64,000 nt of DNA from Thermincola ferriacetica (GTDB lineage: Bacteria; Bacillota; Thermincolia; Thermincolales; Thermincolaceae): contig NZ_LGTE01000002.1 in NCBI RefSeq assembly GCF_001263415.1, positions 186,001 to 250,000 on the forward strand, given 5' to 3'. Below, piece after piece: positions 61,212-62,894 of this stretch (position 1 is its first letter; every line of letters starts with the position of its first letter). The notes beneath the pieces are model-generated. The model searched no databases. It worked only from the letters and a program-made list of their open reading frames with translations, and was not told the origin of the DNA. A program made the position numbers and the translations under genes.

Positions 61212-61703
61212 TTAACCCACATTTTTAAATTTATTTGACGGAGCGCCGCATACCGGGCATTTGTCGGGAGCGCTGCCCTCATGAATATAGCCGCAAACTT
61301 CACAGACAAAATAATCAGTATCAGCCTTCTGCTCCAACAAAGCCAAAGCCTTTTTATAAAGCTCAGCGTGTACCTTTTCTGCTTCATTGGCCAGTTCGAA
61401 GGAGCGTTTTGCCTGTTTGGCCCCTTCAGCATCAGCTTCTTTTATAAAACCGGGATACATTTCGGTAAATTCGTAAGTTTCTCCGTCAATGGCTGCCTGC
61501 AGGTTTTCCGCAGTAGATTTTATTCCCTCCAAAGCCCGCAGATGGCTGTGGGCGTGAATTGTCTCTGCTTCAGCGGCAGCTCTGAACAGTTTGGCCACGC
61601 CGGGATAACCTTCTTCATCGGCTTTCTTGGCAAAAGCCAGGTATTTACGATTGGCCTGGGATTCACCGGCAAAGGCTGCCTGTAAATTTTTTTCTGTACT
61701 CAT
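61212..61703 (-). CDS. Rubrerythrin
   Basis: A 163-residue rubrerythrin: an N-terminal four-helix di-iron domain (AFAGESQANRKYLAFAKKA, AAEAETIHAHSHLRAL, MYPGFIKEADAEG, ANEAEKVHAELY carry the ExxH ligands) and a C-terminal rubredoxin-like FeS4 site (CEVCGYIHEG, CPVCGAP). It reduces hydrogen peroxide in anaerobes. It has its own promoter and terminator, so it is monocistronic. Confidence 0.96.
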   Translation of the reverse strand: MSTEKNLQAAFAGESQANRKYLAFAKKADEEGYPGVAKLFRAAAEAETIHAHSHLRALEGIKSTAENLQAAIDGETYEFTEMYPGFIKEADAEGAKQAKRSFELANEAEKVHAELYKKALALLEQKADTDYFVCEVCGYIHEGSAPDKCPVCGAPSNKFKNVG

Positions 61704-61838: not shown

Positions 61839-62822
61839 TTAACTTGTTTTAACCAATTTCTCCCTGAAAAAATCAAGTTTTTCTGAAATCTTGCCGTACC
61901 AGGCCGCGCTTTGAACCTGTAAAATAAAAGCAAGCGTAACAATCAAGCCGGCTTTAGGTCCGAATGTTGTGACGGCCAAACCCAAGGCCAAGGACAAATT
62001 GCGCATCACCGTCCCGTAAACCACCGTGATAGCATCTTTCCGGTCCATAAGCATCCGCCCCGTCAGGGTGCTAATAAGGTAGTTAAGTAAATAGAAAACA
62101 GATAAAACAATTAAGCCGGTAAAAATAACCGTCGGGTTAGAAATAATCATCCTGGCCTTCATGCTGATACTGGAAAAAATAACAAACAACATAGCCCAAA
62201 CACTTAAAGCTGGGAAAAAAGGTTTAACCTTTTTCTGAAACTGTTCCTGGGTCATGCGGGTCATCAAGAATTTATGAGTAATGTTGCCCAAAATTAACGG
62301 AATGAAAACAATTACAGAAATTGTCAGGAAGGTTTGCTTAACATCTACCTGTACCAATTTTCCAACCATTGCCAAGAGGTACCAGGGAGCCAACAAAGAA
62401 CCGATCAGTAAACTGACGGCCGTTATCTTTACTGCAGCCGGAACGTTACCTTTATGCAGCATTGTCCAGGAAATAGTCATACCGCTGGTGGGCAGTAAAG
62501 ACGCAATGGCCAATCCGGCAAACATCTGAGGTTCACCGGTCAGAAAAGTCAGACCCAAAAAATATGCAATCAGCGGAATGATAGCAAAATTAATGAGTAC
62601 AGTAGCTAAAAGAACTTTGGCATGAGACAGGTCGAAGGCCTCTTTCAACTTGAACCCAATCATAGTAGGAAAAATCATAAGAAACGTAGCCAGCAGTATA
62701 TATTGTTTAAGAAAAGAAGTGTTGTAGACGTAACCCGTTAGAAATCCCAGACCTAAAACGATAGGAATAACAGTAGTTAAATTGTTGGAAGGCCAAAGAA
62801 AAAATCGTTTCAATGTGTTCAT
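61839..62822 (-). CDS. BASS/ACR3-like membrane transporter
   Basis: A 327-residue protein with about ten membrane segments, of the bile acid:sodium symporter/arsenite-permease superfamily. The repeated GxxLxPTSGMTxSW-type segment (LLPTSGMTISWTMLHKGN) marks the family. The Cys conserved in ACR3 arsenite pumps at this helix is absent, and no arsR or arsC is nearby, so arsenite export is not supported. ATG at 62822 has GAGGAGG upstream. A CsoR-family-like operator in its leader points to a metal or reactive-sulfur signal. Confidence 0.8.
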   Translation of the reverse strand: MNTLKRFFLWPSNNLTTVIPIVLGLGFLTGYVYNTSFLKQYILLATFLMIFPTMIGFKLKEAFDLSHAKVLLATVLINFAIIPLIAYFLGLTFLTGEPQMFAGLAIASLLPTSGMTISWTMLHKGNVPAAVKITAVSLLIGSLLAPWYLLAMVGKLVQVDVKQTFLTISVIVFIPLILGNITHKFLMTRMTQEQFQKKVKPFFPALSVWAMLFVIFSSISMKARMIISNPTVIFTGLIVLSVFYLLNYLISTLTGRMLMDRKDAITVVYGTVMRNLSLALGLAVTTFGPKAGLIVTLAFILQVQSAAWYGKISEKLDFFREKLVKTS

Positions 62823-62839
62823 TGATTAACCTCCTCATT

Positions 62840-62856
62840 ATACCCCCATGGGGTAT
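62840..62856. promoter_or_regulatory. CsoR/CstR-family-like operator
   Basis: ATACCCC and GGGGTAT form a 7-bp perfect palindrome around CAT, just downstream of the -10 and before the ribosome-binding site of the transporter gene. C4/G4 tracts flanked by TA are typical of operators for CsoR, CstR and related repressors that sense copper, nickel, formaldehyde or persulfide. The repressor gene is not in the window. Confidence 0.65.
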
Positions 62857-62865
62857 TTTGTGAAT

Positions 62866-62894
62866 ATAATACCACCTGCCCTTTTCTTTGTCAA
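62866..62894 (-). promoter_or_regulatory. Sigma-A promoter of the BASS-like transporter gene
   Basis: On the minus strand a perfect TTGACA (62894-62889) and TATTAT (62871-62866) are 17 bases apart. The operator-like palindrome starts 9 bases beyond the -10, so a bound repressor would block initiation. Confidence 0.85.

What the first reader, a model, noticed from the sequence alone, without database searches (positions are those of the whole stretch)
62840..62894. Strong promoter with a CsoR/CstR-like operator drives a BASS/ACR3-like transporter
A perfect TTGACA-N17-TATTAT promoter is followed by ATACCCC-CAT-GGGGTAT at the start of the transcript. Repressors with such sites sense copper, nickel, formaldehyde or persulfides. 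The transporter lacks the ACR3 Cys, so its cargo may be a metal complex, a sulfur compound or another anion. The pairing suggests a stress-export system with a repressor coded elsewhere.
Basis: partly seen in the sequence, partly recalled or inferred. Interest (0 to 1): 0.55.

Follow-up and report, generated by a model that had tools for sequence, protein, structure and literature searches.

The report
Sulfur-linked repressor site before a transporter
A short mirror-image DNA site lies right behind a strong promoter and probably lets a thiol-sensing repressor of the CsoR family, coded elsewhere in the genome next to thioredoxin, switch on a membrane transporter as part of a scattered sulfur and redox stress regulon.

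Summary
In detail: TTGACA-N17-TATTAT (62894-62866, minus strand), then ATACCCC-N3-GGGGTAT (62840-62856), then a cysteine-free BASS-family transporter (61839-62822). Comparative evidence makes the palindrome a real operator. The genome has 3 perfect copies and 9 with at most one mismatch (reversed control 0), 8 of the 9 ahead of genes; a copy lies directly upstream of 7 of the 12 closest transporter genes, own included. The genome encodes two CsoR-family repressors. One is copper-type; its own gene and copA carry a different CCCCCC/GGGGG operator. The other is co-linear with trxA, keeps both sensor cysteines but has Tyr for the copper-binding His, and has a window-type site before its own gene. 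Predicted co-targets are thioredoxin, YeeE/YedE sulfur transporter, ferredoxins, an Fe-S/cytochrome b pair and HesB-like selenoproteins. In Anoxybacillus the transporter heads an operon with SQR-like and dioxygenase-rhodanese genes; in Carboxydocella it lies near DUF302, TusA and YeeE. Best reading: operator of a trxA-linked, persulfide/disulfide-responsive CsoR paralogue controlling a transporter of a sulfur anion. Effector and cargo are inferred, not shown.

The parts
62889..62894 (-). -35 hexamer TTGACA
   Evidence: consensus match; conserved before the operator in 5 of the other 6 close homologues that have the site
62866..62871 (-). -10 hexamer TATTAT, 17-nt spacer
62840..62856 (.). operator palindrome ATACCCC-N3-GGGGTAT, 9 nt behind the -10, probably at the start of the transcript (start inferred)
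   Evidence: conserved upstream of orthologues
62837..62864 (-). second, overlapping promoter-like pair TTCACA-N16-TATAAT whose -10 is formed by one arm of the palindrome; may be chance
   Evidence: 11 of 12 matches; region as a whole has no more matches than shuffles
62830..62836 (-). ribosome binding site GAGGAGG
   Evidence: by eye
61839..62822 (-). BASS/SBF-family transporter, 327 aa, no Cys
   Evidence: PF01758 93.4 bits, cut-off 24.3; TIGR00832 acr3 69.7 bits, cut-off 282.8, not met

Best explanation
The palindrome is the operator of a CsoR-family repressor coded at G000:C5:103480-103716 just upstream of trxA. The reduced repressor sits at the start of the transcript and blocks the promoter. 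When its cysteine pair is persulfidated or cross-linked by reactive sulfur species (or another thiol oxidant) it lets go, and the transporter is made together with thioredoxin, a YeeE/YedE sulfur transporter, Fe-S electron carriers and HesB-like selenoproteins. The BASS transporter most likely moves a small sulfur anion such as sulfite or thiosulfate, in the place held by TauE-type exporters in cst operons. Shown by computation: promoter, operator, their geometry and conservation, two paralogues with two operator types, the predicted co-targets. Inferred: that this paralogue binds, the effector, the cargo and the direction.
For: Site repeated in front of genes in the genome and conserved upstream of transporter orthologues. 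The trxA-linked repressor has ATACCC-N5-GGGTA-type sites before its own gene in 9 of 10 genomes of the order at 3 or fewer mismatches. The copper-type paralogue's gene and copA carry CCCCCC/GGGGG operators without ATA/TAT ends. The trxA-linked repressor has Tyr where copper CsoR has His, both Cys kept. Homologue operons with SQR-like, dioxygenase-rhodanese, OsmC, DUF302, TusA and YeeE genes. Published sulfane-sulfur sensor ScCsoR binds ATACC-N6-GGTAT (PMC7533328, passages).
Against: No binding or expression data. The same palindrome precedes copper genes in other lineages (G045, G053, G056, G026), so the site alone does not name the effector. 5 of the 12 close homologues lack a direct upstream site, though in Carboxydocella (2 of these 5) a 2-mismatch site heads the operon. 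G011, with a site before both genes, has a trxA-linked repressor that keeps the copper His. The autoregulatory site differs from the consensus by 2 mismatches here. GlcD, HD-GYP and DUF1638 targets have no known sulfur role.
Confidence: 0.55

Rival explanations
1. Copper response: the copper-type CsoR (C3:180233-180472) binds the site and the transporter exports a copper complex or copper-binding ligand.
For: A Cys-His-Cys CsoR is present; ATACCCC palindromes precede copA or copZ-copA in G045, G053, G056 and G026.
Against: In this genome the copper-type csoR and copA promoters carry CCCCCC/GGGGG operators without ATA/TAT ends, and relatives of this csoR in the order lie beside copper ATPases with similar G-rich sites. 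None of the predicted targets here is a copper gene.
Confidence: 0.12
2. The trxA-linked repressor answers a general thiol oxidant or electrophile (disulfide stress, nitroxyl, metal-thiol damage) rather than sulfane sulfur, and the transporter carries an organic anion or conjugate.
For: Linked thioredoxin and the many Fe-S proteins would fit thiol or Fe-S damage. BASS proteins carry varied organic anions, including pantoate (NF047939 partial match).
Against: Homologues in operons with persulfide-dioxygenase-like and SQR-like genes and near TusA and YeeE point to sulfur.
Confidence: 0.22
3. Formaldehyde or nickel/cobalt response by a CsoR-family member (FrmR-like, RcnR/InrS-like).
For: Both repressors belong to the family; weak profile matches to FrmR and RcnR.
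Against: Scores far below the curated cut-offs; no formaldehyde dehydrogenase or nickel gene seen among the targets.
Confidence: 0.03
4. The palindrome is not an operator: chance repeat, or an RNA hairpin in the leader.
For: One of the nine copies in the genome (C1:118772) looks like an intrinsic terminator; 8 perfect 7-N3-7 repeats of any sequence exist in the window.
Against: No T-run follows here; in most homologues the distance to the -10 is kept (4-10 nt in 6 of 7); in G006 and before the own yeeE gene the site lies inside the promoter spacer, where it would not be transcribed as a leader hairpin; copies recur before related genes in many genomes.
Confidence: 0.05

Closest known systems
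ScCsoR of Streptomyces coelicolor, sulfane-sulfur sensor controlling persulfide dioxygenase, rhodanese and a sulfite exporter (PMC7533328, passages read)
   Same: CsoR family; two sensing Cys; operator ATACC-N6-GGTAT; represses its own gene; a transporter among the targets.
   Different: There the targets are one gene cluster and the exporter is TauE-like. Here the targets are scattered, the repressor is linked to trxA and the transporter is of the BASS family.
CstR of Staphylococcus aureus (PMC5480029, passages) and YrkD of Bacillus licheniformis (PMC9918477, passages)
   Same: CsoR-family persulfide sensors with two Cys; targets include sulfur enzymes and a TauE-type transporter (S. aureus); the Anoxybacillus operon of this transporter has SQR-like and dioxygenase-rhodanese genes.
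   Different: In the tree the trxA-linked repressor does not fall with the CstR-like branch (weak support) and its regulon is dispersed.
Copper CsoR (Geobacillus, PDB 4m1p; Mycobacterium tuberculosis, 2hh7)
   Same: Same fold family; 4m1p is the best PDB match (65 bits); similar C4-G4 palindromes.
   Different: Copper-binding His replaced by Tyr in the trxA-linked paralogue.
TTHA1953 of Thermus thermophilus, CsoR-family regulator of sulfur oxidation (PMC10318464, passages)
   Same: A second CsoR paralogue devoted to sulfur genes spread over the genome, with operator specificity distinct from the copper paralogue.
   Different: Its operator TACNNTACNNNNGTANNGTA lacks the C4/G4 runs found here; it controls sox genes.
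BASS transporters: ACR3, PanS, ASBT
   Same: PF01758 over its cut-off; partial matches to ACR3 and PanS profiles; ASBT-type structures are the closest in the PDB.
   Different: No ACR3 Cys; Glu260 and Gln264 of NmASBT (sodium ligands, recalled) align to Val268 and Arg274, the latter invariant in 15 homologues.

Membership tests
CsoR-family operator | pseudo-palindrome with runs of at least 4 C and 4 G (stated in PMC10318464) | tested here: met
   ATACCCC-N3-GGGGTAT
CsoR-family operator | a CsoR-family protein in the genome | tested here: met
   two PF02583 genes over the cut-off
CsoR-family operator | the protein binds this DNA | not testable with these tools
   only autoregulatory sites and co-occurrence
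Copper CsoR (trxA-linked paralogue) | Cys-His-Cys copper triad | tested here: not met
   Cys-Tyr-Cys
Copper CsoR (C3 paralogue) | Cys-His-Cys copper triad and copper genes as neighbours | tested here: inconclusive
   triad met; own gene has no copper neighbour, but relatives in 6 of 7 loci do and own copA has a similar operator
CstR persulfide sensor | two Cys, no copper His | tested here: met
CstR persulfide sensor | groups with CstR proteins in a tree | tested here: not met
   placed apart from the branch holding 7mq1 (named a copper sensor in the PDB; that it is pneumococcal CstR is recalled); weak support
CstR persulfide sensor | released by persulfide or polysulfide | not testable with these tools
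   none
FrmR formaldehyde sensor | NCBIfam FrmR cut-off (133 bits) | tested here: not met
   36.0 and 38.1 bits for the two repressors
ACR3 arsenite exporter | NCBIfam TIGR00832 cut-off (282.8 bits) | tested here: not met
   69.7 bits; the genome's other BASS protein scores 470.3
ACR3 arsenite exporter | conserved Cys in TM4 (recalled) | tested here: not met
   Thr112 at that place; protein has no Cys
BASS/SBF transporter family | Pfam PF01758 cut-off (24.3 bits) | tested here: met
   93.4 bits

The most novel reading that the evidence does not exclude
A subfamily of BASS transporters is an unrecognised exporter of a sulfur (or selenium) oxyanion or persulfide. In Thermincolales and other Clostridia it is controlled by a distinct, trxA-linked CsoR subfamily that lost the copper His several times and became a thiol/sulfane-sulfur switch commanding a scattered Fe-S and selenoprotein regulon.
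Probability: 0.35. Interest if true: 0.68.

Novelty: new variant of a known kind. Interest (0 to 1): 0.5.

Why it matters
It gives an uncharacterised CsoR paralogue a testable genome-wide regulon, ties HesB-like selenoproteins of unknown function to sulfur or redox stress, and proposes a cargo class for a widespread BASS subfamily. It also suggests how two CsoR paralogues in one cell are kept apart: by operators with or without the ATA/TAT ends around the C/G runs.

Tried and rejected
Copper, arsenite, formaldehyde and chance were weighed as rivals. One of the nine genome copies, C1:118772 (L006), was set aside as a terminator (hairpin followed by a T-run). The looser pattern ATACC-N7-GGTAT gave 17 sites against 3 in the control; of the new ones several lie inside genes (L262, L264, L268) and were not counted as targets. 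Perfect sites in G004 on C28, C88, C95 and C52 have no convincing target. Rubrerythrin downstream of the transporter: not found in any of the 30 homologous loci searched besides its own, so it is not treated as part of the unit. Paper searches on CsoR with thioredoxin and Clostridia, CstR with bile acid sodium symporter, YeeE/TsoY selenoproteins, sulfite export with BASS or OsmC, HesB-like with CsoR, and Thermincola with CsoR listed nothing that by title or abstract describes this link; only openly licensed PMC papers were searched. Structure prediction was not run: the fold family was already clear and a model would not settle the cargo.

Rows dropped and limits: one search skipped proteins identical over the first 60 residues (one of the ten trxA-linked repressors of the order among them), and one search left out 3 of the 90 rows (60 residues or shorter). 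The neighbour labels there are rules of thumb (trxA: BLAST hit starting within 900 bp downstream; HMA/CopA: sequence motif within 1600 bp), and the proteins are related, so the Fisher p-value is only indicative. In one search, 10 of 80 transporter loci gave no usable frame; 49 of the other 70 had operon neighbours, 123 proteins, of which 105 were scanned.

Full report
What is there. On the minus strand a near-consensus promoter, TTGACA-N17-TATTAT (62894-62866), is followed 9 nt later by ATACCCCATGGGGGTAT (ATACCCC-N3-GGGGTAT, 62856-62840), a ribosome site and the start codon of a 327-residue BASS/SBF transporter (61839-62822). The scan also reports an overlapping promoter-like pair (TTCACA-N16-TATAAT, 62864-62837) whose -10 is made by one arm of the palindrome; a protein on the palindrome would cover it too.

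Is it more than chance. The window alone cannot say. The genome (3.18 Mb, 78 contigs) has 3 perfect copies and 9 with at most one mismatch, and 0 for the reversed pattern. Sixty-one genomes hold 47 perfect copies and no reversed one, and each of the 10 genomes of the order (own included) has at least one. Of the nine copies here, eight precede or overlap the start region of a gene: the transporter, a 63-residue ferredoxin, a twin-arginine-like 4Fe-4S protein with cytochrome b561, a GlcD-like FAD oxidase, a HesB-like selenoprotein, a 59-residue protein followed by a ferredoxin, an HD-GYP protein followed by a ferredoxin, and a DUF1638 protein; the ninth looks like a terminator. Two weaker copies (2 mismatches each, a level at which the control also gives hits) precede a second HesB-like selenoprotein and a YeeE/YedE pair.

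Conservation at the transporter. Of the 12 transporter genes with at least 50% identity (own included), 7 have the site with at most 1 mismatch directly upstream (own, G001, G002, G003, G005, G006, G011) and 5 do not (G013, G059, G050, G056, G058). G046, at 35% identity, has a 3-mismatch copy. Six of the 7 keep the order promoter, 4-10 nt, operator; in G006 the operator lies inside the promoter spacer and an arm forms the -10. G006 appears to be a Thermincola ferriacetica assembly, because its contig C55 has the same length as the record of L157. In 80 homologues from named genomes (the best 80 of 291), 8 have a copy with at most 2 mismatches within 350 bp upstream, against 3 hits in 624 kb of the rest of those loci; two of the 8, L151 and L157, repeat G005 and G006.

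Homologue operons. In Carboxydocella (L150; G013 and G059 are the matching genomes without a direct site) the transporter is fourth in an operon (4Fe-4S protein, cytochrome b561, RACo-type protein, transporter) headed by ATACCCAGTAAGGGTAT; further down follow a small coiled protein, a methyltransferase, DUF302, YeeE/YedE and TusA. In two Anoxybacillus genomes ATACC-N6-GGTAT precedes transporter, OsmC, an SQR-like protein, an unknown, and a metallo-beta-lactamase/rhodanese fusion of persulfide-dioxygenase type (domains and neighbours on L158; L159 has the same order). Over 105 operon neighbours of the transporter homologues the commonest Pfam families are Pyr_redox_2, DUF302 and OsmC (5 each), then response regulator, rhodanese and thioredoxin (3 each).

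Which repressor. The genome has two PF02583 genes. The one on C3 has the copper triad Cys-His-Cys. Of 7 loci of this type in the order, 6 have a copper-ATPase-like neighbour (own does not). Its promoter here, and that of copA, carry CCCCCC/GGGGG-type operators without ATA/TAT ends. The one on C5 is followed by trxA. In the order the gene run is aspS, a ThiF-like gene, csoR, trxA where visible, then a RarA-like ATPase gene in most (gene names by eye). The C5 protein has Cys-Tyr-Cys, and ATACCC-N5-GGGTA-like sites lie 54-82 bp before its domain in 9 of 10 genomes of the order, own included. Repressors in the same gene run outside the order often keep His (G011, G012, G046, G050); others have Asn, Gln or Tyr. 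Both cysteines are kept in 27 of 27 trxA-adjacent proteins and His in 13 of 27, against His in 24 of 24 HMA/CopA-adjacent ones (Fisher p 1.7e-5, lineages related). A Cys pair that is kept while the copper His is not is what one expects of a thiol switch. The tree puts most of these proteins apart from the CstR-like branch and from most copper-linked ones, with poor support (0.19 for the trxA-linked group).

How it likely works. Reduced repressor bound at the start of the transcript hinders initiation; persulfide, polysulfide or disulfide chemistry on the Cys pair releases it. The target list (thioredoxin, YeeE/YedE, ferredoxins, Fe-S/cytochrome b, Sec-containing HesB-like proteins) suits reactive sulfur handling in an anaerobe. 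HesB-like frames with in-frame TGA (GFG-TGA-GG or similar) lie right behind perfect sites in G001, G005 and G009, besides the two here behind 1- and 2-mismatch sites. YeeE/YedE genes also follow perfect sites in G002 and G005 (recognised by eye). The cargo is a guess: cst-type operons carry TauE-like sulfite or sulfonate exporters, and the transporter could take that place in the Anoxybacillus operon. The lack of cysteine and an invariant Arg274 where NmASBT has Gln264 would suit an anion and argue against ASBT-type sodium binding (sodium ligands recalled).

Against. There is no experiment. The same palindrome serves copper genes in other lineages. Five close homologues lack a direct site. G011's repressor of this group keeps His. 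Some targets have no known sulfur role. The site before the C5 repressor's own gene is a weaker match than the window's.

Papers. PMC10318464, PMC5480029, PMC9918477 and PMC7533328 were seen as passages; all other papers only as search listings.

Noticed in passing
window 61212-61703 (-): Rubrerythrin gene 135 bp downstream of the transporter; not found near any of 30 homologous transporter loci, so co-transcription is open.
   Followed up: partly
L146:2771-3067 and L147:2591-2905 (own genome, C1): Two HesB/IscA-like genes with an in-frame TGA (GFG-TGA-GG, GFG-TGA-SG), likely selenoproteins; matches to NF038090 and TIGR01911 below cut-off for the first.
   Followed up: partly
L269:845-1954 (own genome, C16): A true ACR3 arsenite exporter (TIGR00832, 470 bits) beside an ArsR-like gene.
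   Followed up: yes
L295 (own genome, C3:135000-141500): copA promoter with a CCCCCCC/GGGGGG operator, unlike the window site.
   Followed up: yes
L009:1278-1457 (own) and L150:5507-5740 (Carboxydocella): Small coiled protein with no Pfam match; by eye the two resemble each other, and both stand in the presumed regulon or cluster.
   Followed up: no
L136 near 2040, minus strand (G005): A perfect site is followed by a short ferredoxin-like frame with a TGA directly before a Cys codon; Sec or a later start is possible.
   Followed up: no
L169:3965-5560: In another Bacillota genome ATACCCCCAGGGGTAT precedes the transporter, followed by a HesB-like frame split by a stop, perhaps a selenocysteine codon.
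   Followed up: no
L261 and L265 (own genome, C2:40098 and C15:21766): Looser ATACC-N7-GGTAT sites lie near an FmdE-like gene and a ZIP transporter gene; significance unknown.
   Followed up: no
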